From contig NZ_CP074102.1 in assembly GCF_018310535.1 (NCBI RefSeq), positions 8,680,001-8,744,000 on the forward strand: a stretch of DNA of 64,000 nucleotides. The letters are read 5' to 3'. A model generated the notes under the pieces. That model was not told the origin of the DNA, did not search any database, and worked only from the letters and a program-made list of their open reading frames with translations. This document shows, one piece after another, positions 1,434 through 13,847 of the stretch. Each line of letters opens with the position of its first letter. Position 1 is the first letter of the stretch. Made by a program: the position numbers and the translations under genes. This stretch comes from Streptomyces mirabilis (lineage in GTDB: Bacteria; Actinomycetota; Actinomycetes; Streptomycetales; Streptomycetaceae).

Positions 1434-2875
1434 TAGGGCTTGGTCAGGTCTGTATTGGTGCTGGTATGTCGCGGTGGCAGGTCGGGCAGGCGCCGGTCCA
1501 GACCGCGAGCAGTGTCTGTAGCTCGCGGACGACCTGGTAGAGGCTCAGGCCGACGCCGTGTCTTTTGGGGCCCGGGCCAGTCGTTGCAGAGTGCAGAAGG
1601 CATGTGCGACAGAGACAAGGGTGACGTGGTGGTGCCAGCCGCCCCAGGTCCGGCCCTCGAAATGGGCCAGGCCCAGGGCCTGCTTCATCTCCCGGTAGTC
1701 GTGCTCGATGCGCCAGCGGAGCTTGGCGAGCCGGACCAGCGTGGTCAGAGGCATGCCGGAGGGCAGGTCGGACAGCCAGAACTGCACCGGCTCGCTCTCA
1801 CCGGCAGGCCATTCGGCCAACAGCCAGCACTCTGGCAGCTCCGGGCCGTTGGTGGCCTGCCGAACCTCGCGTCCGGCAGGCCGGATGCGCAAGGCCACGA
1901 AGCGGGAGTACATCCGCTTGCGGCCGGAGCGGCCGGTGCCAGGCCGGGAGCCTTCACGCCACTGCACCGGCCGAGCTGCCTTCCGCCCCGCCGCGATGAC
2001 CAACTCCTTCACCGACCGTGGCTTGTCGGGATACTTGGCCACCGGCGGGCGTCCGGTCCCGGAGTACGGCTCGGCCACCGGCACCGCGTCGGCGGGCTGA
2101 GCCGACAGCGTGGTGGAGATCCCCACCACGTAATTCAGGCCGCGGGCCTGCAGTCCGTGGCGGAACGCGGCAGCGTCGCCGTATCCGGCGTCCGCGACGG
2201 CCAGCGGCACCTCGATCCCCCACGAGCGGGTCTCGTCGAGCATGTCCAGGGCCAGCTGCCACTTCTCCACATGCCCGACATCGTCCGGGATGCCGCAGGC
2301 GGTGCGGCGGGCGATCTTGTCCGCATCGGCCTTCGGTGAGGCGGGATCCCAGGTCCGGGGCAGGAACAGCCGCCAGTTGACCGCCGCCGAGGCGGTCTCG
2401 GACGCGAGGTGGACCGAGACGCCGACCTGGCAGTTGGTGACCTTGCCCGCGGTGCCGGTGTACTGCCGCGACACGCATGCCGAGGCAGTCCCGTCCTTGA
2501 GGAACCCGGTGTCGTCGAAGACCAGGGCTTCCGGCCCGATCACCTTCTCCATCCGCCAGGCGAGCTGGGCCCGGATATGTGCCGGGTCCCAGGGGCTGGT
2601 GGTGATGAAGTTGGCCAGTGCCTGACGATTGCCGTCCTCCCCGAGCCGGGCGGCCATCGGCTCGACCGACTTACGCTGCCCGTCGGTCAGCAGCCCCCGC
2701 AGATAAACCTGCCCCCACCGGCGCTGATCCTTGCGCGCGAACGGCTCGAACACCTCCGCCGCGAACGCCTCCAACTCACCACGCACCACAGCAATCTCGT
2801 CCGGAGTCACACACTCTCAACGCCACACCGGGCCGACAGGACACGCACCACCACAACCGACCTGACCAAGCCCTA
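1434..2875 (-). mobile_element. IS701-family insertion sequence, copy A
   Basis: A 1442-bp element with perfect 17-bp terminal inverted repeats beginning TAGGGCTTGGTCAGGTC, flanked on both sides by CTAG (1430-1433 and 2876-2879). It carries one transposase gene on the minus strand. A second copy lies at 60436-61877 in the same orientation. Reading the two side by side I found a single difference (base 2583 versus 61585), which is silent in the transposase. The near identity and intact ends indicate recent movement. A 4-bp CTAG target duplication fits the IS701 family. Confidence 0.93.
1545..2810 (-). CDS. IS701-family transposase
   Basis: 421-residue DDE transposase (DDE superfamily endonuclease, IS701 type). 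The N-terminal region contains RRWGQVYLRGLLTDGQRKS. The first catalytic aspartate is probably in ALVFDDTGFLKDG, the second in VPLAVADAGYGD, and the acidic end of the triad in LRWRIEHDYREMKQALG. Length is normal for the family and no frameshift is present, so the enzyme should be active. It acts on the ends of its own element. The protein is identical to that of copy B. Confidence 0.93.
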   Translation of the reverse strand: MTPDEIAVVRGELEAFAAEVFEPFARKDQRRWGQVYLRGLLTDGQRKSVEPMAARLGEDGNRQALANFITTSPWDPAHIRAQLAWRMEKVIGPEALVFDDTGFLKDGTASACVSRQYTGTAGKVTNCQVGVSVHLASETASAAVNWRLFLPRTWDPASPKADADKIARRTACGIPDDVGHVEKWQLALDMLDETRSWGIEVPLAVADAGYGDAAAFRHGLQARGLNYVVGISTTLSAQPADAVPVAEPYSGTGRPPVAKYPDKPRSVKELVIAAGRKAARPVQWREGSRPGTGRSGRKRMYSRFVALRIRPAGREVRQATNGPELPECWLLAEWPAGESEPVQFWLSDLPSGMPLTTLVRLAKLRWRIEHDYREMKQALGLAHFEGRTWGGWHHHVTLVSVAHAFCTLQRLARAPKDTASA

Positions 2876-4640: not shown

Positions 4641-5738
4641 TTACAACTTGCCCGTCCTCATATCAGCACTGCTCTTGAGGATCGCAGAGTCGAGGCTCCA
4701 GTTCTCCGGTTGGACCCTCTCCCAGAGACTACCTTTACCGAGTTCCCTTCCCACCTGATCCTCCCGGCGGAACCACTCCTCAGCACTCCTGATCCTGTTG
4801 GGGTGGATTTCATCGAGCAGAGCGTAATCCCTAGTGATGATTCCGTGCTTCCACGTATTCCAGAAGCCCGTGAAGTTGTCCCGGAAGCTCATGGTGCTTT
4901 TGTCGTTGGGATCGGCGTTATAACCGGCAGGCTGATCAGCAATGCCCTTCACGTCCGGCGCGTTCCAATAAGTATCCAGATCAGTGTCGATGTACTGCGC
5001 CGGATGCCCGGTGACCTTCTCGAACGCCGCAGCCATGTCGGCATAGGTCATGTGCTCGATGGCGACTTCAAGGTCCGTGCCATTCGCGCGCTCCGGATGG
5101 TCGAAGAGCCAGCGAGCGTAGAAGCCGCAGTCTTCGAGGGCCACGTGAGGAACGGCTCCCTCGCCGAGAGGGACTCGCCACGTGACGACACCGTTTTCAA
5201 CGCTGGGTGTCATGGGCGTGAGCGGTGAGATCACCATCTCAATGTAGGGACCTGACGTGAAGACCGCTGCTCCCATCCGGTCCCTGTTCTTTTCATTTTG
5301 AAACAGCACCCATTCGGCCATGCGGCCTTTACCGTCATAATGCCCGGTGCGGAACCTCGAGTCGTAGCCGGACTTCTTGAGAGTGTAGTCGAGGTTTCCG
5401 TAGACGAAGAACTTGATTCCTTCTTCAATCGCTATCTCGTAACTGCGGATCGCCCAGTAGGTCTCCGTTTTCTCGCCGGTGTTGAACCCGTCGATGTTGA
5501 TGAATGCGCCGTCACAGCTTCGAAACCCTTCCCGCAACGCGTCCTCGTCGGCGAACGACCCTTCGAGGAGGGAGACGTTGCCGAGCGCGAGGAGCGCTTG
5601 GGCTCGGGGGGAGTTGGAATCGCGAGTGAGAACCCGGACGGAGTATTTCTTGTCGGCGACAAGAGAGCGGACGATGGGCATTCCTTGAGCCCCTGTACCG
5701 CCGATCACGAAGATGTTGGAGGTGGTGTGAGAAGACAT
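4641..5738 (-). CDS. NmrA-like NAD(P)-binding protein
   Basis: 365-residue protein of the NmrA/HSCARG-like atypical short-chain dehydrogenase family. The N-terminus has the Rossmann glycine motif IGGTGAQGMPIVRSL. Further on come YGNLDYTLKKSG and an NmrA-type C-terminal region with MTYADMAAAFEKVTG. NmrA-like proteins usually sense the NADP(H)/NAD(H) state or reduce quinones rather than act as classical dehydrogenases. I prefer ATG 5738 because GGAG lies 9 bases upstream. Base composition is clearly lower in GC than its neighbours (lines near 4800 are about 50-55 percent GC), a sign of foreign origin, possibly from a fungus or a lower-GC bacterium. A double palindrome lies 105-142 bases upstream of the start, linking it to the TetR regulon. 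Confidence 0.85.
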   Translation of the reverse strand: MSSHTTSNIFVIGGTGAQGMPIVRSLVADKKYSVRVLTRDSNSPRAQALLALGNVSLLEGSFADEDALREGFRSCDGAFINIDGFNTGEKTETYWAIRSYEIAIEEGIKFFVYGNLDYTLKKSGYDSRFRTGHYDGKGRMAEWVLFQNEKNRDRMGAAVFTSGPYIEMVISPLTPMTPSVENGVVTWRVPLGEGAVPHVALEDCGFYARWLFDHPERANGTDLEVAIEHMTYADMAAAFEKVTGHPAQYIDTDLDTYWNAPDVKGIADQPAGYNADPNDKSTMSFRDNFTGFWNTWKHGIITRDYALLDEIHPNRIRSAEEWFRREDQVGRELGKGSLWERVQPENWSLDSAILKSSADMRTGKL

Positions 5739-5842: not shown

Positions 5843-5880
5843 AAACCGATCGGTTTCAAACACGTTACTCCGATCGGTTT
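5843..5880. promoter_or_regulatory. Paired TetR-type operators upstream of the NmrA-like gene
   Basis: AAACCGATCGGTTT at 5843-5856 is a perfect 14-bp palindrome. A second copy at 5867-5880 keeps the core CCGATCGG and the right arm TTT but has a degenerate left arm. Centre-to-centre distance is 24 bp, the same as at the SDR, MFS and second hydrolase promoters in this window. Confidence 0.8.
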
Positions 5881-6197
5881 CCGTGCGGCAAGGTCTCAGG
5901 CAGTGGCGCCTCGACGACCTCACGATCCTGGGCACGGAAGGCGCCCATCACGGTCGGCCAGGACAGATGCAGGTGCCAGGCAGCCTGGATGACCGGAGAC
6001 CCGGCAACCCCTGCCCGGCGCCCGGCCGTCGTCCGCAACCCGGCAGACACGCGTCGGCCAGCACCGGACTCTTCGTCACGAGTTGAACCCGTGCGGCCGG
6101 AGCCCTGTGCCTTCCTCCCGTTTGGCTGGGAAGGACGTTTGTCGACGCTCCATCGCAGCGCACATCCGTCTGCCCAGGCAGCCCGAAAGGCGATGCG
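5881..6197. other. Intergenic region without recognisable gene
   Basis: About 315 bp between the operator pair and the 3' end of the broken tetR gene. Only short frames of random-looking composition are present, and no RNA gene or terminator hairpin stood out. Confidence 0.45.
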
Positions 6198-6748
6198 TCA
6201 GCGCATGCCTGCCGCATCGAGCAGGGCGGCCGCCATGGGCGCGACGAGCCCCGTCAGCTTGTCGGCGCCGATCCCCGCACGGGCACTGGCGCCATCGAAG
6301 ACCACCATCAGCTGCCGGGCCAGCCGTCCCGGATCGCTCACCCCACCCTGTTGGCCATCAGGTTCCCCTTGACCCGGTGGGCCACCCGGCTGGCGGGGTG
6401 GCTCTGATCCTTCAGGTCGATCTGCACAGCCAGGTACGCACAGCCCTTGAATTCCGGCGCCCCCGCCTGCGACTCCAACTGCTCGAAGACATGCAGGATC
6501 CGCCCCCGGGCGGAAAGCCCGTCTCCTGCCTCAGGCAGGAGACGGGCAGCGTAGGAAGCGGCTCGCCGCTCCAGGCTCGCCGCCAGCAGGTCGTCCTTGC
6601 TCTCGAACAGCTGGTACATCGAGCGCTTGGACACCCCCGCCGCCTTGCACAACGCCTCGACGCCGATAGTGACGCCCTCGCGGTAGGCGAGCGTGGCCGC
6701 TGCCTCCAGCAGCCGCTCTCGGGACGTCGGCTTCGCCTGTGTAGTCAT
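6198..6748 (-). pseudogene. TetR-family regulator inactivated by a 19-bp deletion
   Basis: The N-terminal half is intact: SRERLLEAAATLAYREGVT, then the helix-turn-helix ALCKAAGVSKRSMYQLFESK. It aligns closely with the intact paralogue at 11869-12438. After HRVKGNL the frame breaks. Compared with the paralogue, 19 bases (the equivalent of TTCTTCCGCGCCGAGGCCG) are missing near 6350-6365, which gives a stop after 136 residues. The rest of the ligand-binding domain continues in another frame down to a TGA at 6198 (ending in AAGMR in both copies). The truncated protein may still bind DNA but probably cannot dimerise or respond to ligand normally. An operator palindrome lies at 6781-6794 in its promoter. 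Confidence 0.85.
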
Positions 6749-6780
6749 GATGTGAGGCTAACTCGGGTTTCCGTAAATGA

Positions 6781-6794
6781 AAACCGATCGGTTT
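6781..6794. promoter_or_regulatory. TetR-type operator in front of the broken tetR copy
   Basis: Perfect palindrome AAACCGATCGGTTT, 32 bases upstream of the TetR start at 6748. A very degenerate second site can be fitted 24 bp away near 6757-6770 (right arm GGGTTT only). The same single-site arrangement occurs at the intact tetR gene (11823). Confidence 0.8.
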
Positions 6795-7067
6795 ACCGAT
6801 TGTGGCTACGTCTCCGCCATGCCGGAACGCCGGTCTCCCTGGGCTTTCTCGACGGGGATGCAGTGCTGCCCCCTGGCGCCTCAAAGGGCGCGGGCCCTCA
6901 GGATCATCGCCCCGACATCCACGGGGATGTCGGCTGCCACGAGACGGAGCCGGGCTGCCGCGGTCCGGCCTGGCGACGGCCCAACGCGACCCTCTGATCG
7001 CGGGATCGACTTGAGTTCGGCCGGTGGCAGGACCGGGAGTCAGCTCCCGCTCGGGCTTGCAACGGGG

Positions 7068-7104
7068 AACCGATCGGTTAACGGTGATGGAAACCGATCG
7101 GTTT
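7068..7104. promoter_or_regulatory. Paired TetR-type operators upstream of the SDR-hydrolase operon
   Basis: AACCGATCGGTT at 7068-7079 and AAACCGATCGGTTT at 7091-7104, centres 24 bp apart, ending 30 bases before the SDR start. Their position over the presumed promoter fits repression by a TetR protein bound as a pair of dimers. Confidence 0.85.
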
Positions 7105-7133
7105 CTTGTTGTGAGCATTTGTGGAGGCATGTC

Positions 7134-7835
7134 ATGACCGCTCTGAAAGGCGCGAGTGTCTTCGTCACCGGCGGCAGCCGCGGTATAGGAAAGGCCCTCG
7201 TGGAGGAGCTCTATGCGCGCGGTGCCGGCAAGGTCTACGCGACGGCCCGGGACCCGCGCAGCGTGACGCACCCGGATGCGGTCCCGGTGGCGCTGGAGGT
7301 CACCGACCCGGCTTCCGTGGCGGCGGCGGCCGCGCAGGCGGAAGACGTCACCGTCCTGATCAACAACGCTGGCGCGTCGGTGGGCGCGTCCTTCCTTGAC
7401 TCACCGGTCGACGACGTGCGCCGCGAGTTCGAGACCAACTTCTACGGCCCGTTGCTGGTCGCACGGGCCCTTGTGCCGGGCATCGAGCGCAACGGCGGCG
7501 GCCGCCTCCTCAACGTGCACTCCGTGCTCTCCTGGCTGGCCCTCGGCGGCTCCTACAGCGCCTCCAAGGCCGCCCTGTGGTCGCAGACCAACTCCCTGCG
7601 CCTGGAACTGCAGCCGCGCGGCATCACCGTCACCGGACTGCACGTGGGATACGTGGACACGGACCTGACGGTCGGCGTCGACGCACCCAAGTCCGACCCG
7701 CGTGACGTCGCCGCACTCGCCCTGAACGGCGTCGAGACGGGCGCGTACGAGGTGCTCGCCGACGACGTCTCACGGCAGGTCAAGGCGGGCTTGGCCGGGG
7801 GCCTGGCCGGGCTGTACCCCCAGCTGCCGAAGTAG
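7134..7835 (+). CDS. Short-chain dehydrogenase/reductase (SDR)
   Basis: 233-residue classical SDR. It has the NAD(P)-binding motif TGGSRGIG at residues 12-19, LINNAGASVG after beta-4, the catalytic serine in LNVHSVLSW, and the catalytic YSASK. Length is typical. The substrate is unknown; SDRs oxidise alcohols or reduce carbonyls. ATG 7134 is chosen because GGAGG lies 6 bases upstream. The hydrolase at 7931 follows after 95 bases in the same direction with no operator between them, so the two are probably co-transcribed and controlled by the operator pair at 7068-7104. Confidence 0.9.
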   Translation: MTALKGASVFVTGGSRGIGKALVEELYARGAGKVYATARDPRSVTHPDAVPVALEVTDPASVAAAAAQAEDVTVLINNAGASVGASFLDSPVDDVRREFETNFYGPLLVARALVPGIERNGGGRLLNVHSVLSWLALGGSYSASKAALWSQTNSLRLELQPRGITVTGLHVGYVDTDLTVGVDAPKSDPRDVAALALNGVETGAYEVLADDVSRQVKAGLAGGLAGLYPQLPK

Positions 7836-7930
7836 CGGCCGACCGCAGCGAAGGCCCTGGCCGCGCGCCACCCCCGCCTGCCCGGCCGTATCCGAATCAC
7901 CATCCGCAATTGACACAAGGAGACGGCGAG

Positions 7931-8809
7931 ATGCCGACCCAAGAGGTGCGTCCCACGATCCATATTCCGGGGACCACCAGCCACACCATCGCCCCGCGTG
8001 CAGGCCGTCACAGCCGCGAGGGCACCCTGCGCTACCGCAAAGCGGGCGCCGGAGCTCCCCTGGTCCTGCTGCACACTCTGCGCACGCAGGCCGAGCACTT
8101 CCGCTTCCTCATGCCGCTGATCGCGGATCAGTACACCGTGTACGCCCTCGATCTGCCGGGGATGGGCTACTCGGAGATCGTGCCCGGCGCGTCGTACGAA
8201 GAGCCGGCGCTGCGCGCGGGCGTCGAACGGCTCCTCACCGAACTCGACCTCTACGACGTGACATTGGTCGGGGAGTCGTTGGGCGGGGTGCTCGCCCTCA
8301 CCACCGCCGCCGATCTGCCGGAGCGGGTACGGCGCGTCGTCGCGGTGAACGCGTACGACTACCGAGACGGAATCGCCCGGTCCAGTGTCCTCGCTCGTGT
8401 GGTGATCGGCGGGATTATCGCTCCGGGGGTGGGTCCGGTGATCGCCCAGCAGGAGCCCAAGCCCGTCCTGCGTAGAATCCTGCAGGGCGGCGTGGGTGAC
8501 AAGGCCGCTTTTCGGGAGGACTACCTGGACGAGCTCCTCCGGTCAGGCAGGCGTCCCGGCTTCCCGACCGTCGCCCGCGCTCTGTACCGGAACATGCCCA
8601 GCCTCATCGCGGCACGCGCGCGCTACCCCGAGGTCGAGGCTCCCGTCCACCTCGTCTACGGCGAGAACGACTGGTCCCGGCCCTCGGACCGGGAAGCCAA
8701 CAAGAAGCTGCTGCCCGCCGCCGACTTCACAGAGGTACCGGGAGCGCACCACTTCATCGCCCTGGAGAGGCCGGAAATAGTGGCCGACTTGTTGAACGCG
8801 ATGGCATGA
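7931..8809 (+). CDS. Alpha/beta hydrolase, copy 1
   Basis: 292-residue alpha/beta-hydrolase fold protein. Oxyanion region VLLHTLRTQAEHF, nucleophile elbow LVGESLGG (Ser nucleophile), an acidic residue near YGENDWSRPSD, and the catalytic histidine in VPGAHHFIALERP. It is closely similar along its whole length, and identical in length, to the protein at 12969-13847. The 5' leader also matches (CGTATCCGAATCACC and ACACAA-GGAG upstream of both), so the two arose by duplication. Likely an esterase or epoxide-hydrolase-like detoxification enzyme. The substrate is not deducible. Confidence 0.9.
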   Translation: MPTQEVRPTIHIPGTTSHTIAPRAGRHSREGTLRYRKAGAGAPLVLLHTLRTQAEHFRFLMPLIADQYTVYALDLPGMGYSEIVPGASYEEPALRAGVERLLTELDLYDVTLVGESLGGVLALTTAADLPERVRRVVAVNAYDYRDGIARSSVLARVVIGGIIAPGVGPVIAQQEPKPVLRRILQGGVGDKAAFREDYLDELLRSGRRPGFPTVARALYRNMPSLIAARARYPEVEAPVHLVYGENDWSRPSDREANKKLLPAADFTEVPGAHHFIALERPEIVADLLNAMA

Positions 8810-8854
8810 CCGCGAGGGCCTGAATGGTCGCGCGGTCGACGAGCCGCTTCGGTC

Positions 8855-9045
8855 CTAGGCCAAGATCGCAACGCGGAGCTGGGCCATCCCCTTGGGCAGC
8901 GCCGAATGCCGCAGGTCGTACGGGTGCTGCTTCGCAAGCGGCGTGTTGGTGAGCGCGGGTGGCAGGGCGAGCGCGCGGGTTTCGTGCCAGTCCCGGTGGT
9001 AGCTGGTGCGGCTGATGATCTGGCCGCCTCCCGTGAAGAACAGCC
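8855..9045 (-). pseudogene. Tyrosine recombinase C-terminal remnant
   Basis: The minus-strand segment reads SYHRDWHETRALALPPALTN, then PLAKQHPYDLRHSAL. This matches the box-II region of streptomycete phage-type integrases (YHRVWHxARxxAL, then RPYDLRHxALSLW). The sequence loses similarity right after HSAL, and neither the second His box nor the tyrosine is present. It is fused upstream to an MMPL relic, showing that a deletion joined two unrelated genes. Confidence 0.6.
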
Positions 9046-9543
9046 GCGTCGCGCGCATGGGTCGAGACGGCATTGCCGTCGAAGGTGACCGACACCGGGC
9101 CGTGGCGCCCTCGGCGTCGGTGATCTTGGCGCTCGTGGCGCCGAGCTGCTCGGCGTACGCCGGAGCACCGCGCCTTCCTCCTTCGAGGTTGCGTCGAACT
9201 TCAGCACAGGCAGCGAGTCGATGGACTTCACCGCGTCGCTATCGAAGGAGCGCTCCATGGTGTCGAAGACCTGGCGGCCCTAACAGCTGCTCGACAGTTG
9301 CTGCACGTTGATAGAGCCGAACTCGATCCGCATGAACGGCGCGCCGAGCGCCAGCAGCAGGCCCACCGTGCCCACCACCACAATGGCCTGACGCCGCAGC
9401 AAGCCGCGCCCGAGCCGGCACCAGGCACCCTCGCTCGCCATCGTCGACCGCACGGCCTTCTTGCAGCGGCGCAGCTGGAAGGCATTGGCCTTCGGGCAGA
9501 GAACGGCGGCCGGCGCGGGCGTGCGCGTTTTCGGATCGCTCAC
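9046..9543 (-). pseudogene. MMPL-family exporter internal fragment
   Basis: On the minus strand GAWCRLGRGLLRR, then IVVVGTVGLLLALGAPFMRI and EFGSINVQQL, correspond to the second membrane-domain entry of MMPL/RND transporters. After a stop near 9283, further pieces in shifted frames (EQLGATSAKITDAEG, VSVTFDGNAVSTHARDA) match the following extracellular domain. Several frameshifts and missing ends mean it cannot function. It lies between the hydrolase operon and the MFS gene and probably marks an old insertion or deletion. Confidence 0.6.
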
Positions 9544-9576
9544 AGGTCAGCGGCTCCCCGCTCACTTGCGCCATGG

Positions 9577-9614
9577 AAACCGATCTGTTTACCTGAGTGG
9601 AAACAGATCGGTTT
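9577..9614. promoter_or_regulatory. Paired TetR-type operators upstream of the MFS exporter
   Basis: AAACCGATCTGTTT (9577-9590) and AAACAGATCGGTTT (9601-9614), centres 24 bp apart. Each has one changed core base, in opposite arms, so the 38-bp block as a whole is also an inverted repeat around its middle. It ends 41 bases before the MFS start. Confidence 0.82.
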
Positions 9615-9655
9615 CCGGTCGGTGTTCGGCCTATGACCAGCAACAAAGGGAAGAC

Positions 9656-11155
9656 ATGACTACCACCTTCGACCGTGAGGCACCCGCCTCCGGGAAAGCA
9701 GACTCGGGCCGCCGCGGCTCACATGCCGTGCGCTGGTGGGTGCTCGTCGTGCTGGGCACGGCGCAGCTCATGGTCACGCTCGACGCGACCGTCGTGAACA
9801 TCGCGCTGCCCGAAGCGCAACACGACCTCGGTTTCAGCGACGGCAGCCGGCAGTGGGTCATCACGGGGTATGCCCTGGCGTTCGGCAGCCTGCTGCTGCT
9901 CGGGGGCCGACTCGGCGACCTGTTCGGCCGACGTACGACCTTCGTGACCGGCCTGATCGGTTTCGCGGCCGCATCCGTCGTCGGCGGCGCGGCCACCAGC
10001 TTCGAAATACTCGTCGCGGCACGCGCGGCCCAGGGCCTCTTCGCCGCTCTGCTCGCGCCCGCGGCGCTCTCACTGCTCAGCGTGACCTTCACCCAGCCGG
10101 CCGAAAGGCCGAAAGCCTTCGGCATCTTCAGTGCGTTGTCCGGTGCGGGCGCAGCGGTCGGACTCCTGCTCGGCGGCATGCTGACCGAATGGGCGTCGTG
10201 GCGCTGGGTGATGTACGTGAACGTCATCTTCGCGGCCGTCGCGCTGGCTGGTGCGCTGCTGTTGCTGGCCAAGCCCGTGGTCACCAAGCGACCCAAAATA
10301 GATATTCCTGGCACCGTCGTGGTGAGCGCCGCGCTGTTCGGCATCGTCTACGGGTTCGCGCACGTCGAATCCACCAGTTGGACCGACCCGGTCGCCCTCG
10401 GCTCCGTGATCAGCGGCGTGGTGCTGCTCGCGGTCTTCGCATGGCTGGAGCTCAGGGTCGCGCATCCGCTGCTGCCGCTGCGCGTCGTGCTGGACCGGAC
10501 CCGAGGTGGTTCGTTCCTGGCCGTGTTCGTCCTGGGCATGGGAATGTTCTCGATCTTCCTGTTCCTGACCTACTACTTGGAGGCCAGCATCGGCTACTCG
10601 CCGATCGAGGCCGGTCTGTCCTTCCTGCCAATGGTCGGCGGCATCGTCGCCTCGTCGACCACGGTGCCTTCACTGCTGCTGCCCAAGGTCGGCCCGAAGG
10701 CCGTGGTCAGCGTCAGCTTCCTGGTCTCCGCATCCGGCATGGCCCTGCTGACCCAGCTCACGCTGGACAGTAGCTACGTCGCCAACATCATGCCGGGCAT
10801 GATCCTGTTGGGTCTCGGTATCGGTGGGGTGATGACCACCGCGTTCCAGGGTGCGACCGCAGGCGTGCACCACGAGGACGCGGGCGTCGCCTCGGCGCTG
10901 ATCAACACCAGCCAGCAGGTGGGCGGCTCGATCAGCACGGCACTGCTGACCACCGTTGCCTCATCGGCCGCGACCGACTACCTGTCCTCGCACAAGCCCG
11001 GCGCGCTGACCGTGGCCCAGGCCGGGGTCGAGAGCTACACGTCCACCCTGGTGTGGGGCGCCGGGATCTTCGTCGTCGGTGCCGTGCTCGCGGCGTTCCT
11101 GTTGCCGAATTCGGCCCTGGCGCCGTCGGAGGGCGAGCCCGTGATCGCCCACTGA
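9656..11155 (+). CDS. DHA2-type MFS multidrug exporter (EmrB/QacA family)
   Basis: 499-residue membrane protein with about 14 hydrophobic segments, as in the drug:H+ antiporter-2 family. Diagnostic motifs: LDATVVNIALPEA in the first helix (motif D1), GGRLGDLFGRR in loop 2-3 (motif A), and the helix-5 segment GAGAAVGLLLGG (motif C). It should export small hydrophobic compounds across the cytoplasmic membrane. AAAGGGAAG lies before ATG 9656. The double operator at 9577-9614 puts it under the same TetR control as the SDR and hydrolase genes, so the substrate may be the regulator's inducer. Confidence 0.93.
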   Translation: MTTTFDREAPASGKADSGRRGSHAVRWWVLVVLGTAQLMVTLDATVVNIALPEAQHDLGFSDGSRQWVITGYALAFGSLLLLGGRLGDLFGRRTTFVTGLIGFAAASVVGGAATSFEILVAARAAQGLFAALLAPAALSLLSVTFTQPAERPKAFGIFSALSGAGAAVGLLLGGMLTEWASWRWVMYVNVIFAAVALAGALLLLAKPVVTKRPKIDIPGTVVVSAALFGIVYGFAHVESTSWTDPVALGSVISGVVLLAVFAWLELRVAHPLLPLRVVLDRTRGGSFLAVFVLGMGMFSIFLFLTYYLEASIGYSPIEAGLSFLPMVGGIVASSTTVPSLLLPKVGPKAVVSVSFLVSASGMALLTQLTLDSSYVANIMPGMILLGLGIGGVMTTAFQGATAGVHHEDAGVASALINTSQQVGGSISTALLTTVASSAATDYLSSHKPGALTVAQAGVESYTSTLVWGAGIFVVGAVLAAFLLPNSALAPSEGEPVIAH

Positions 11156-11370
11156 GCCTGAATCCACCGGGGATACGCGCCTGCCACAACGAGTGGACTG
11201 CGGGAAATGCCCTGCTACCTGCGCTGATTGGTGTCCTCAAGGCACAGATCAGCGTAGGAAGGCAGGGCAGTCTCCGAGATGGTGCCCACTGCTATGCGCG
11301 CGATCCGTCTTCAGGGAACTGATCCTCGCAGGTAGCGGGCACCTTCCGTCAACACGGCGTCAGATCCACG

Positions 11371-11756
11371 ATGGGCTGCATTTCCGGGGCCGATGGTCAC
11401 ACCGGTCTGGCGGGCGCGGCCAGCCTCATGGGGATGTGCCCCTCCTGTCTGCCGCTGCTGTGGCTGTACCCGGTGTGCGCCATCGCGATCTCCGGGATCG
11501 GTGGGCTCAAGGTGCTGCCCGTCTGCTACCGCTTCCTCGCAGAGTTCGAGCCACTGCGGTAGGACACCGGCGGTATCCGCTCGATCCTCTACAACGGCGC
11601 CCAGTGGGCGCGAGCCCGGCCAGGGGCTGGGTGTGGATGGCCGTCGGCCTCATCGCGGACGCACTCTCCGGCTTCGGGGGTGACGGGCGGCCGCCAGGGG
11701 CTGCACCGCGCCCCCCGCCCGGACGAAGCCCCGAGAAGACCTCCGCCCCGGCCTAG
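11371..11756 (+). pseudogene. Degenerate small membrane protein gene
   Basis: The first frame reads a hydrophobic, cysteine-containing segment (MGMCPSCLPLLWLYPVCAIA) and stops after FEPLR. The same frame continues after the stop with DTGGIRSILYNGAQWARA, and a second shift gives VWMAVGLIADALSGFGG. Together they look like one broken membrane protein of unknown family. No neighbour explains it. The segment could also be chance reading frames. Confidence 0.35.
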
Positions 11757-11822
11757 CGGAACCGTACTCACATGCCCGCCCGGCCCGTGGGCGGCGCGAA
11801 GATCGCCCCGGCAAAGCGCCGT

Positions 11823-11836
11823 AAACCGATCGGTTT
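11823..11836. promoter_or_regulatory. TetR-type operator at the intact tetR promoter
   Basis: Perfect palindrome AAACCGATCGGTTT, 32 bases upstream of the TetR ATG (11869). The same distance separates the operator and start of the broken copy. This implies autoregulation by a single site and supports this TetR as the protein that recognises the palindrome. Confidence 0.82.
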
Positions 11837-11868
11837 TCAATTTGTCCACATTGAGTTAACCTCGCGGT

Positions 11869-12438
11869 ATGACCACCGAAGTGAAGCCAAGTACCAGAGA
11901 GCGGCTGCTGGAGGCAGCGGCCACGCTCACCTATCGAGACGGTGTCAGCATCGGCATCGACGCCGTGTGCAAGGCAGCCGGAGTGTCGAAGCGCTCCCTG
12001 TACCAACTGTTCGAGAGCAAGGACGAACTGCTCGCGGCGAGTCTGGAGGAGCGCTCCTCCGCCTTCGTGGCGACCCTCCTGCCCGCGGCGGACGACGGTC
12101 GGTCACCTCGCGAGCGGATCCTGCACGTCTTCGACCAGTTGGAGGAGCAGGCGGGTACGCCCGACTTCCAAGGCTGCCGATACCTGGCTGCTCAGATCGA
12201 GCTCAAAGGCCAGAGCCACCCCGCGAGCCGAGTGGCCCACCGGGTCAAGGCGAACCTGACAGCCTTCTTCCGCGCCGAGGCCGAACAGGGCGGGGCGAGC
12301 GATCCCGACCTGCTGGCCCGGCAGCTCATCTTGGTCTTCGACGGCGCCAGCGCCCGCGCCGGGATCGGCGCCGACAAACTGACCGGGCTCGTCGCGCCCA
12401 CGGTGGCCACCCTGCTCGGCGCGGCAGGCATGCGCTGA
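11869..12438 (+). CDS. TetR-family transcriptional regulator, intact copy
   Basis: 189-residue TetR regulator of normal length. The N-terminal domain has STRERLLEAAATLTYRDG and the helix-turn-helix AVCKAAGVSKRSLYQLFESK. The ligand-binding half includes ILHVFDQLEEQAG and ends GLVAPTVATLLGAAGMR. It is a close paralogue of the broken gene at 6198-6748 and retains the 19 bases lost there. I infer that it represses the genes carrying AAACCGATCGGTTT palindromes between 5.8 and 12.9 kb, and that it is now the only functional repressor of the set in this window. Confidence 0.9.
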   Translation: MTTEVKPSTRERLLEAAATLTYRDGVSIGIDAVCKAAGVSKRSLYQLFESKDELLAASLEERSSAFVATLLPAADDGRSPRERILHVFDQLEEQAGTPDFQGCRYLAAQIELKGQSHPASRVAHRVKANLTAFFRAEAEQGGASDPDLLARQLILVFDGASARAGIGADKLTGLVAPTVATLLGAAGMR

Positions 12439-12716
12439 CGCATCCCTTTTCGAGCGGGTGCCGTGACCGTGCGCTCCCCGGGTTGATGGCTTCATGTCCC
12501 TGACTCCCGGCAATCGGAGGGGAGCTTGATGGCCGTAAAGGGTGTTGACGAGCATGCCGCGCGCAGGGAAGGCCGCCGTCTCGTCGACACCAGCACCCAA
12601 CGCCGGGTGCACGGTTCCTCAGGGCCTCATCCAGCCGGCCCGGACCACTTCGCCGCATCACCCTGGGCCTCGGCCGCTGCCGCGGCGGCGTAGCCCTACA
12701 CCTGCATCTGGAGTGT

Positions 12717-12835
12717 TCAGAGGTGCCGTAGCTTGAGCGCGAACTCGGCGACCGCTGCGCGGATGACACTTTCGCGTCTCTCCTGCGCACTGACCCTGTT
12801 GCTGCGGATGGCAACCTCAGCCTTGTGAGCGGAAA
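12717..12835 (-). pseudogene. Third TetR-family remnant (first helix only)
   Basis: On the minus strand the segment reads SNRVSAQERRESVIRAAV, then AEFALKLRHL and a stop at 12717. This is the beginning of a TetR DNA-binding domain (RVSAxERRESVIxAAxxEFA), cut off before the helix-turn-helix. No start codon sits at the usual place (ATC instead of ATG before RSNR). It is divergent from hydrolase copy 2 with the operator pair between, the classic layout of a TetR and its target, so the target's original local regulator has been lost. Confidence 0.6.
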
Positions 12836-12870
12836 CCGATCGGTTTACGATGATGGAAACCGGTCGGTTT
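12833..12870. promoter_or_regulatory. Paired TetR-type operators upstream of hydrolase copy 2
   Basis: AAACCGATCGGTTT at 12833-12846 and AAACCGGTCGGTTT at 12857-12870. Centres are 24 bp apart, with the same intervening ATGATGG motif style as at 7080-7090 (GTGATGG). About 100 bases separate the block from the hydrolase start. Confidence 0.85.
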
Positions 12871-12968: not shown

Positions 12969-13847
12969 ATGCCCAGCCCAGAGCCACGTCCCACGATTCA
13001 CATTCCGGGGACCACCAGCCACACCCTCGCTTCGCGCGGGAGACGCAACGACCGCGAGGGAACCCTGCGCTACCTCAAGGCGGGCACCGGTGCTCCCGTC
13101 GTCCTGCTGCACACCGTACGCACCCAGGCCGAGCACTTCCGCCACCTCATCCCCCTGATCGCGGACCAGTACACGGTGTACGCCCTCGACCTGCCGGGGA
13201 TGGGCTACTCCGAGATCGTGCCCGGCGCCTCGTACGACGAGCCGGCCATGCGCGCGGGCGTCAAGCGGCTCCTCACCGAACTGGACCTCCACGACGTGAC
13301 GTTGGTCGGGGAGTCCATGGGGGCGGTGCTCGCCCTGACCTCCGCGGCCGATCTCCCGGAGCGGGTACGGCGCGTCGTCGCGGTCAACACGTACGACTTC
13401 CGCGACGGAATCGCCCGGTCGAGTCTCCTCGCCCGCGTGGTTGTCAGCGGTGTCCTCATGCCGGGAGTGGGCCCGGTGATCGCCGGGGTGGAGCCCAAGG
13501 CCGCCCTCCGCAGGATCCTGCAGGGCGGGCTGGGCGACAAGGCTGCTTTGCGGGCAGACTACGTCGACGAGCTCCTCCAGGTGGGCAGCCGCCCCGGCTA
13601 CCCGACCGTCGCCCGGGCCGTGTACCAGAGCCTGCCCAGTCTCATCGCCGCCCGCTCGCGCTACCCCGAGGTCAAGGCACCCGTCCACCTCGTCTACGGG
13701 GAAAACGACTGGTCCCGACCCTCGGACCGGGAGGCCAACACGGAACTACTGCCGGCCGCCGACTTCACGCAGGTGCCGGGAGCGGGCCACTTCATCGCGC
13801 TGGAACGGCCCGGCATCCTCGCCGATCTGTTGAGCGCAGCGGCGTGA
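12969..13847 (+). CDS. Alpha/beta hydrolase, copy 2
   Basis: 292-residue alpha/beta hydrolase, closely similar paralogue of the protein at 7931-8809. Nucleophile elbow LVGESMGAVLAL, acidic region YGENDWSRPSD, catalytic His in VPGAGHFIALERPG. Upstream AAAGGGAGCC provides the ribosome binding site. Unlike copy 1 it has no SDR partner in front and stands alone behind its own operator pair. The conserved 5' leader and equal length show a recent segmental duplication. Confidence 0.9.
   Translation: MPSPEPRPTIHIPGTTSHTLASRGRRNDREGTLRYLKAGTGAPVVLLHTVRTQAEHFRHLIPLIADQYTVYALDLPGMGYSEIVPGASYDEPAMRAGVKRLLTELDLHDVTLVGESMGAVLALTSAADLPERVRRVVAVNTYDFRDGIARSSLLARVVVSGVLMPGVGPVIAGVEPKAALRRILQGGLGDKAALRADYVDELLQVGSRPGYPTVARAVYQSLPSLIAARSRYPEVKAPVHLVYGENDWSRPSDREANTELLPAADFTQVPGAGHFIALERPGILADLLSAAA

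What the first reader, a model, noticed from the sequence alone, without database searches (positions are those of the whole stretch)
5843..12870. A local TetR regulon marked by double palindromes with fixed 24-bp spacing
The palindrome AAACCGATCGGTTT (or one- or two-base variants) occurs at six promoters in 7 kb. At four enzyme/transporter promoters (NmrA-like, SDR-hydrolase, MFS pump, hydrolase 2) it occurs twice with centres exactly 24 bp apart; at the two tetR promoters there is one good site 32 bases from the start codon. Fixed spacing across unrelated genes indicates selection for cooperative binding of two dimers. The set would give a coordinated hydrolysis, reduction and efflux response to one unknown inducer.
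Basis: partly seen in the sequence, partly recalled or inferred. Interest (0 to 1): 0.85.

Follow-up and report, generated by a model that had tools for sequence, protein, structure and literature searches.

The report
TetR regulon with operators astride promoters
A Streptomyces repressor appears to control a small set of enzyme and export genes by sitting on two copies of one palindrome that straddle each promoter's -10 box, an arrangement seen in many relatives; it is a clear and apparently undescribed regulon, though built from familiar parts.

Summary
Ten palindromes AAACCGATCGGTTT (up to 3 mismatches; 0.68 expected) lie in 5843-12870: four pairs exactly 24 bp apart and two single sites 32 bp before two tetR genes. 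In the 9.6-Mb genome, exact copies occur only here and at a paralogous tetR/SDR locus on the other arm, with its pair 31 bp apart. Paired sites and this TetR co-occur in 92 of 392 genus genomes (6 sites only, 20 TetR only).

The 24-bp spacing is preferred, not fixed: of 202 pairs examined, 169 are at 22-26 bp (106 at 24) and 33 at 30-37. Better conserved is the upstream site's place in the promoter: CTTGC begins 11-12 bp before it, and a -10 box TAnnnT starts in its last base (not in MFS promoters). The downstream site covers the predicted transcription start or lies just after it. So spacing mainly reflects a repressor-promoter-repressor layout; dimer cooperativity is possible but unshown. 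tetR autoregulation is well supported (site exactly 32 bp from the start in 88 of 94 tetR matches). One window tetR is frameshifted. I found no paper describing it. A new regulon of a known kind.

The parts
4641..5738 (-). NmrA-like NAD(P)-binding protein (365 aa), regulon member
   Evidence: Pfam PF05368 E 2.8e-27; paired operators upstream
5843..5856 (-). Downstream operator O2 of the NmrA promoter, AAACCGATCGGTTT (exact)
5862..5867 (-). Predicted -10 box TAACGT (inferred)
   Evidence: sequence; TAnnnT rule
5867..5880 (-). Upstream operator O1 of the NmrA promoter (2 mismatches)
5888..5892 (-). Predicted -35 element CTTGC (inferred)
   Evidence: sequence; position rule
6338..6748 (-). TetR paralogue (TetRB), 136-aa open frame; frameshifted, residues 137-189 lie in another frame at 6201-6359
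6781..6794 (-). Single operator 32 bp before the tetRB start (exact)
7056..7060 (+). Predicted -35 element CTTGC of the SDR-hydrolase promoter (inferred)
   Evidence: sequence
7067..7080 (+). O1 of the SDR promoter, GAACCGATCGGTTA (2 mismatches; last base A, so the -10 position reads AACGGT)
7091..7104 (+). O2 of the SDR promoter (exact)
7134..7835 (+). SDR-family oxidoreductase (233 aa)
   Evidence: PF00106; NF006119
7931..8809 (+). Alpha/beta hydrolase 1 (292 aa), probably co-transcribed with the SDR (inferred)
   Evidence: PF00561; 81% identical to hydrolase 2
9565..9569 (+). Predicted -35 element CTTGC of the MFS promoter (inferred)
   Evidence: sequence
9577..9590 (+). O1 of the MFS promoter, AAACCGATCTGTTT (inner half-site altered)
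9601..9614 (+). O2 of the MFS promoter, AAACAGATCGGTTT (inner half-site altered)
9656..11155 (+). MFS efflux protein of the LmrA/EmrB/TcmA kind (499 aa)
   Evidence: PF07690; best NCBIfam hits LmrA, EmrB and TcmA, all below their cut-offs
11823..11836 (+). Single operator 32 bp before the tetRA start (exact)
11857..11862 (+). Predicted -10 box TAACCT of tetRA; would give a leaderless mRNA (inferred)
   Evidence: sequence; same or similar in most upstream regions printed
11869..12438 (+). TetR-family repressor (TetRA, 189 aa), the predicted regulator
   Evidence: PF00440; close homologue of solved structure 3JSJ
12822..12826 (+). Predicted -35 element CTTGT of the hydrolase-2 promoter (inferred)
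   Evidence: sequence; TTG position rule
12833..12846 (+). O1 of the hydrolase-2 promoter (exact)
12846..12851 (+). Predicted -10 box TACGAT (inferred)
   Evidence: TAnnnT rule
12857..12870 (+). O2 of the hydrolase-2 promoter (1 mismatch)
12969..13847 (+). Alpha/beta hydrolase 2 (292 aa)
   Evidence: PF00561

Best explanation
An autoregulated TetR repressor (TetRA, 11869; probably also its paralogue TetRC at the second locus) binds (G)GAAACCGATCGGTTTC(C). At structural-gene promoters one dimer occupies O1, buried between the -35 (CTTGC) and the -10 (TAnnnT, sharing its first T with O1), and would block RNA polymerase binding. A second dimer occupies O2, over or just past the predicted +1, and would block open-complex formation or escape. 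At tetR promoters a single operator overlaps the predicted -35. An unknown lipophilic or electrophilic inducer would release the dimers, giving joint reduction (SDR, NmrA), hydrolysis and export (MFS; probably DUF3533 in relatives). Shown here by comparative sequence: operators, promoter-like geometry, conservation, co-occurrence with the TetR. Inferred: binding by this TetR, repression, start sites, inducer, any cooperativity.
For: Site enrichment in window and genome. Pair motif and TetR co-occur: 92 both, 6 motif only, 20 TetR only, 274 neither of 392 genomes, Fisher p 1.7e-61 without phylogenetic correction. Site exactly 32 bp before the start in 88 of 94 tetR matches. Of 108 pairs oriented by the homologous gene downstream, TAnnnT begins in the last base of O1 in 87 and at none of the 21 other offsets tried on that strand; CTTGC begins 11 or 12 bp before O1 in 98 of 108. 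In 152 pairs both promoter elements fall together on exactly one strand in 129, TTG alone in 19, TAnnnT alone in 4. In 30 long-spaced pairs 29 keep both elements on exactly one strand while O2 slides. Flanks of different promoters in one locus are 30% identical on average against 28% when shuffled, and 44% for same-family promoters of other loci. TetRs 51-52% identical to TetRA, beside the same paired motif in other genera, keep the helix GVSKRxxYQLF. Precedent: Thermus TetR TTHB023 binds CTGACCGATCGGTCAG with KD 2 nM, at sites over the core promoter or +1 (PMC7022988).
Against: No binding or expression data. Start sites and -35/-10 boxes are predictions. All 16 MFS pairs lack TAnnnT, and the window SDR promoter has AACGGT there. 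The mirrored control is not empty: read from O2 on the other strand, TAnnnT occurs at offset 5 in 26 of 108, at offset 0 in 5 and at offset 6 in 2. Six genomes have pairs without a TetR hit at 1e-40; in five of them the printed long pair lacks CGATCGG in both sites and looks like chance, but G270's pair and the second pairs of G238 and G310 were not printed. Twenty have the TetR without a strict pair. One tetR of 94 matches (L083) has no site. Single different-family promoter pairs reach 59% flank identity, above the shuffled 99th percentile of 42%.
Confidence: 0.77

Rival explanations
1. One reading: 24 bp is set chiefly by cooperative contact between two dimers bound side by side.
For: Sharp peak: 106 of 202 pairs at 24 and 161 at 23-25, in unrelated gene families. 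Positions 27-28 are empty apart from one pair at 27 bp (G238) that I judged chance; the long class centres about 9 bp further on, a little under one helical turn. Two-dimer binding is known for QacR and MAB_4384 (PMC5895659 passages).
Against: The second locus of this genome and many relatives have 29-37 bp. In 29 of 30 long pairs both promoter elements stay with O1, so the added length lies downstream of the -10 and the O1-promoter distance is what is kept. By B-DNA geometry (recalled), 24 bp is about 2.3 turns, 82 A, centres about 100 degrees apart. Pairs before the DUF3533-labelled genes prefer 23 (19 of 30).
Confidence: 0.3
2. The shared spacing is descent: one promoter cassette was copied in front of several genes.
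For: Hydrolase 1/2 and the SDRs are paralogues (81% and 77%); three of the four window spacers read like ACnnTnnTGG or close to it; some different-family promoter pairs reach 59% flank identity.
Against: Outside operators and promoter boxes, different promoters of one locus are on average barely more alike than shuffled (0.303 against 0.277, 135 comparisons), the six window comparisons are 0.24-0.36, and same-family promoters of other loci reach 0.441. NmrA, MFS and DUF3533 genes are unrelated.
Confidence: 0.12
3. Each palindrome is bound QacR-like by two overlapping dimers, so the double sites would hold four dimers.
For: TTHB023 has two sites offset by 4 bp at TTHA0987 (PMC7022988 Table 2); MAB_4384 binds as two dimers.
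Against: Conservation drops outside the 16-18 bp palindrome, promoter boxes apart. I did not search specifically for offset second palindromes.
Confidence: 0.12
4. Another regulator, not this TetR, owns the palindrome.
For: No binding data exist.
Against: Genome co-occurrence, the autoregulatory site at 32 bp, and the family precedent for the core ACCGATCGGT.
Confidence: 0.04

Closest known systems
TTHB023 / PfmR of Thermus thermophilus (TetR family)
   Same: Operator core ACCGATCGGT; sites over the core promoter and +1; own promoter bound; targets include a 3-oxoacyl-ACP reductase and possibly an efflux protein (PMC7022988: passages, Discussion and tables).
   Different: Flanks CTG..CAG instead of AAA..TTT; target set tied to fatty-acid and phenylacetate metabolism; no conserved O1/-10/O2 layout in the sections I read. 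Similarity to TetRA is weak if 3VPR is PfmR (recalled; 3vpr E 3.3e-4).
3JSJ, a solved TetR-family protein named only 'putative'
   Same: Near-full-length homologue, E 3.3e-96, residues 1-188, with AAGVSKRSMYQLF at the recognition helix.
   Different: No operator or function found: the search for 3JSJ returned 0 papers.
Tn10 TetR with tetO1/tetO2 (recalled)
   Same: Two palindromic operators for two TetR dimers around promoters.
   Different: One divergent control region with a dedicated pump, not the same pair repeated before many genes.
QacR (recalled) and MAB_4384 of M. abscessus (passages of PMC5895659)
   Same: Two dimers per control region upstream of an efflux gene.
   Different: There the two dimers share one operator; here two separate palindromes lie on either side of the predicted -10.

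Membership tests
TetR-family repressor | N-terminal TetR_N HTH domain and a protein of about 190 aa | tested here: met
   PF00440 above its cut-off; 3JSJ homologue
TetR-family repressor | Autoregulation through an operator in its own promoter | tested here: met
   Sequence level only: site exactly 32 bp upstream in 88 of 94 tetR matches
TetR-family repressor | Binds the operator and is released by a ligand | not testable with these tools
   No biochemical data
PfmR / TTHB023 group | Operator core ACCGATCGGT | tested here: met
   Core present in the consensus site
PfmR / TTHB023 group | Clear sequence orthology over the whole protein | tested here: inconclusive
   3vpr matched only at E 3.3e-4 and 7.4e-4 with the N-terminal part; that 3VPR is PfmR is recalled
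QacR-type cooperative two-dimer operator | Two dimers on overlapping sites within one operator (recalled definition) | tested here: not met
   The repeated unit is two separate palindromes with centres 22-37 bp apart; whether each palindrome takes one or two dimers was not testable
   24 bp at 4 of 4 window pairs but 31 bp in the same genome's second locus, and 22-26 or 29-37 bp in relatives

The most novel reading that the evidence does not exclude
The regulon carries a conserved, promoter-by-promoter dial. O1 and O2 lie on both sides of the -10, and family-specific base changes at one operator position (MFS: inner half-sites of O1 and usually O2; DUF3533-labelled genes: often O2) tune affinity; the matching position costs TTHB023 about 130-fold when changed to G. 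Exporters would then be released at lower inducer than the enzymes. Two O1-O2 distance classes, about 9 bp apart, would mark two repressor sub-lineages (TetRA, TetRC) that cross-talk through one operator.
Probability: 0.3. Interest if true: 0.62.

Novelty: new member of a known kind. Interest (0 to 1): 0.45.

Why it matters
It gives a solved TetR structure without known function (3JSJ) a predicted operator and target set that a single gel shift can test. It offers a natural series of about 200 operator pairs with the upstream site held constant and the downstream site sliding, which could separate promoter occlusion from dimer cooperativity. It also points to a conserved detoxification-type response in Streptomyces whose inducer is unknown.

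Tried and rejected
Literature: the 14-mer appears in 0 papers. ACCGATCGGT with TetR gives 3 papers, only the Thermus one relevant by listing. 3JSJ gives 0. SAV143, AACCGATCGG, 'CCGATCGG TetR' and DUF3533 gave 19 papers, none relevant by listing (SAV143 was a recalled guess at the 3JSJ locus). Keyword sets on Streptomyces TetR/SDR/NmrA and on tandem operators gave nothing on this system by listing, and LmrA/YxaF/QacR likewise. 'Not described' rests on these searches of open-licence papers only.

Controls: the five control palindromes gave 11, 43, 47, 6 and 398 matches with 0, 0, 13, 0 and 136 pairs, against 422 matches and 152 pairs for the motif. The last is only 2 mismatches from the motif and mostly finds the same sites; the 13 pairs of ACACAGATCTGTGT fit the altered MFS sites, which are 3 mismatches from it. 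These two say little; the other three gave no pairs. Gene-based orientation gave 5 of 108 pairs whose TAnnnT is on the other strand, probably wrongly assigned genes; I left them in the 87 of 108 count. The 133 of 136 non-MFS count uses orientation by the promoter rule, so it is partly circular; 87 of 108 and the one-strand counts are the fairer figures. Nine pairs with ambiguous genes and 35 without a reference gene were left out of the 108. The 50 extra pairs come partly from a search for long spacing, so the 169:33 ratio is not a population estimate; in the genus sample the strict pattern gives 164 pairs, 55 of them long (6 of those judged chance).

Considered and rejected: recent promoter duplication (mean flank identity). 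A clean split of spacing by TetR clade: the association is real (TetRA-containing genomes 19 long/91 short pairs, TetRC-only 30/15) but not strict (clades set by best E-value, threshold 1e-75).

Long-class hits in G034, G062 (two), G238, G309 and G310 were judged chance by eye, because both sites lack CGATCGG; they stay in the 51 of 392 count and the 98 of 392 count. One search keeps only pairs with at most 2 mismatches per site.

Full report
OBSERVATION. All ten matches to AAACCGATCGGTTT (up to 3 mismatches) in the 64-kb window lie in 5843-12870; shuffles give 0.68 on average and 4 at most. They form four pairs with centres exactly 24 bp apart and two single sites, each 32 bp before a tetR start codon. 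Pfam confirms NmrA-like, SDR, two alpha/beta hydrolases, MFS and two TetR proteins. In the whole genome (9.62 Mb; the window is C1:8680001-8744000) there are 26 places at up to 2 mismatches against 2 for the reversed control, and only 7 exact ones: five here and two at C1:514989/515020.

SECOND LOCUS. That locus (L005) carries a TetR 57% identical to the one at 11869, with one site (1 mismatch) 32 bp before its start, and an SDR 77% identical to the window SDR. The SDR promoter has two exact sites 31 bp apart. So the regulon is not confined to the window, and the 24-bp spacing is not universal even in this genome.

BROKEN PARALOGUE. The tetR at 6338-6748 matches residues 1-132 in one frame and 137-189 in another. 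It is frameshifted, or the assembly has an error there; TetRA at 11869 is intact.

DISTRIBUTION. Among 392 genomes of the genus, 98 have a strict pair and 112 a TetR at E up to 1e-40. 92 have both, 6 only the pair, 20 only the TetR and 274 neither; Fisher p 1.7e-61, not corrected for relatedness. At class level 10 of 197 genomes have a pair, 3 of them outside the genus, all long-spaced; those three lie beside a TetR 51-77% and an SDR 35-70% identical to the window's. Named relatives (78 loci; the best 80 of 198 were kept) include Saccharothrix, Actinomadura, Nonomuraea, Pseudonocardia and Streptacidiphilus records with TetR identities of 84-87%, which suggests horizontal movement (inference).

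SPACING. In the window, L005 and the 78 named loci there are 152 pairs: 22 bp 1, 23 bp 30, 24 bp 96, 25 bp 16, 26 bp 6, 31 bp 2, 33 bp 1. The full long-class list of the genus search holds 49 pairs after leaving out 6 judged chance: 29 bp 1, 30 bp 8, 31 bp 12, 32 bp 7, 33 bp 4, 34 bp 7, 35 bp 9, 37 bp 1; the only pair at 27-28 bp is a chance-like one in G238. Spacing depends on the gene: 24 in 17 of 18 hydrolase pairs, 15 of 16 MFS, 27 of 36 long SDR, 23 of 32 short SDR and 6 of 8 NmrA, but 23 in 19 of 30 pairs of a further family. These labels come from BLAST to the window proteins and ORF length; the further family is called DUF3533 from Pfam of one representative.

WHAT IS BEST CONSERVED. 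For 108 pairs oriented by the homologous gene downstream, TAnnnT starts in the last base of the upstream site (O1) in 87 and at none of the other offsets from -8 to +13. Read from O2 on the other strand it occurs in 5 at offset 0, 26 at offset 5 and 2 at offset 6, so the mirrored control is not empty. CTTGC begins 11 (73) or 12 (25) bp before O1, so TTG begins 10-11 bp before it. Of the 21 exceptions, 14 are all the MFS pairs of that set, 5 carry the element on the other strand (by eye), and 2 remain (window SDR, L108). Over all 152 pairs both elements are on exactly one strand in 129, TTG alone in 19, TAnnnT alone in 4. In the 30 long-spaced pairs 29 keep both elements on exactly one strand, in the 20 short ones of that set 19. 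The length difference therefore lies between the -10 and O2. The -35 to -10 spacer (TTGnnn to TAnnnT) comes to 17-18 bp, and +1, taken as about 7 bp after the -10, falls in the first bases of O2 at 24-bp spacing and before O2 in the long class (inference).

AUTOREGULATION. Of 94 tetR matches in these loci, 93 have a site at up to 2 mismatches within 150 bp, and in 88 the gap to the start codon is exactly 32 bp. The 94 count the two pieces of the frameshifted tetR separately and one divergent match (L058) whose site belongs to a neighbouring promoter. A TAACCT, or close to it, ending 6 bp before the start codon in most sequences printed, implies a leaderless mRNA with the operator overlapping the -35 (inference).

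INDEPENDENCE. Excluding operators and boxes, promoters of different genes in one locus are 30.3% identical on average (135 comparisons, maximum 59.3%), shuffled 27.7% (99th percentile 42.4%), same-family promoters of other loci 44.1%; the six comparisons within the window are 24-36%. The four window promoters are thus not recent copies, though some promoters elsewhere may be.

SITE QUALITY. O1 is perfect in 102 of 152, O2 in 68. O2 deviates at position 5 in 48. MFS pairs have T at O1 position 10 in 16 of 16 and A at O2 position 5 in 13 of 16; the DUF3533-labelled pairs have T at O2 position 5 in 20 of 30. The matching position in TTHB023 (its mutant m6, C to G) raises KD from 2.1 to 279 nM (PMC7022988 Table 1). 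Graded affinity is thus plausible, not shown.

MECHANISM. Repression by promoter occlusion (O1) plus a block at the start site (O2) is the best reading. The Thermus authors argue similarly for sites over +1 (PMC7022988: Discussion; tables and legends; passages). The TetRs beside the paired motif in other genera keep the recognition helix although only 51-78% identical overall. Cooperativity remains open: the 24-bp peak and the near-empty 27-28 bp class speak for some distance constraint, the 29-37 bp class and the non-integral 2.3 turns against an obligatory contact.

NOVELTY. No paper with this operator was found (open-licence library only). The parts are familiar; the conserved layout and the sliding downstream operator are the new element.

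Noticed in passing
window 6201-6748 (-): The tetRB gene is frameshifted near residue 132-137; its operator matches the consensus exactly.
   Followed up: partly
window 9633-9659 and MFS loci L046-L116: A mini-ORF of 4-8 codons (M-T/P-S-N/D...) starts mostly 18 bp after O2 before the MFS gene and stops at or just before its Shine-Dalgarno or start; 15 of 16 loci have an ATG/GTG-led one. Possibly a leader peptide.
   Followed up: partly
window 9577-9614 and 16 MFS pairs: MFS promoters keep CTTGC in the 14 printed cases but lack TAnnnT (0 of 16); their -10 is unexplained.
   Followed up: partly
window 1545-2810 (-): DDE_5 transposase (PF13546, E 1.1e-98), about 1.8 kb from the NmrA gene at the edge of the regulon.
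   Followed up: no
genomes G254 and G243: Enlarged sets: 8 and 5 strict operator pairs.
   Followed up: no
window 8810-9560: Stretch between hydrolase 1 and the MFS promoter; the three ORFs tried had no Pfam match, perhaps gene remnants.
   Followed up: partly
L083 position 8001: The one tetR of 94 matches without a site within 150 bp upstream.
   Followed up: no
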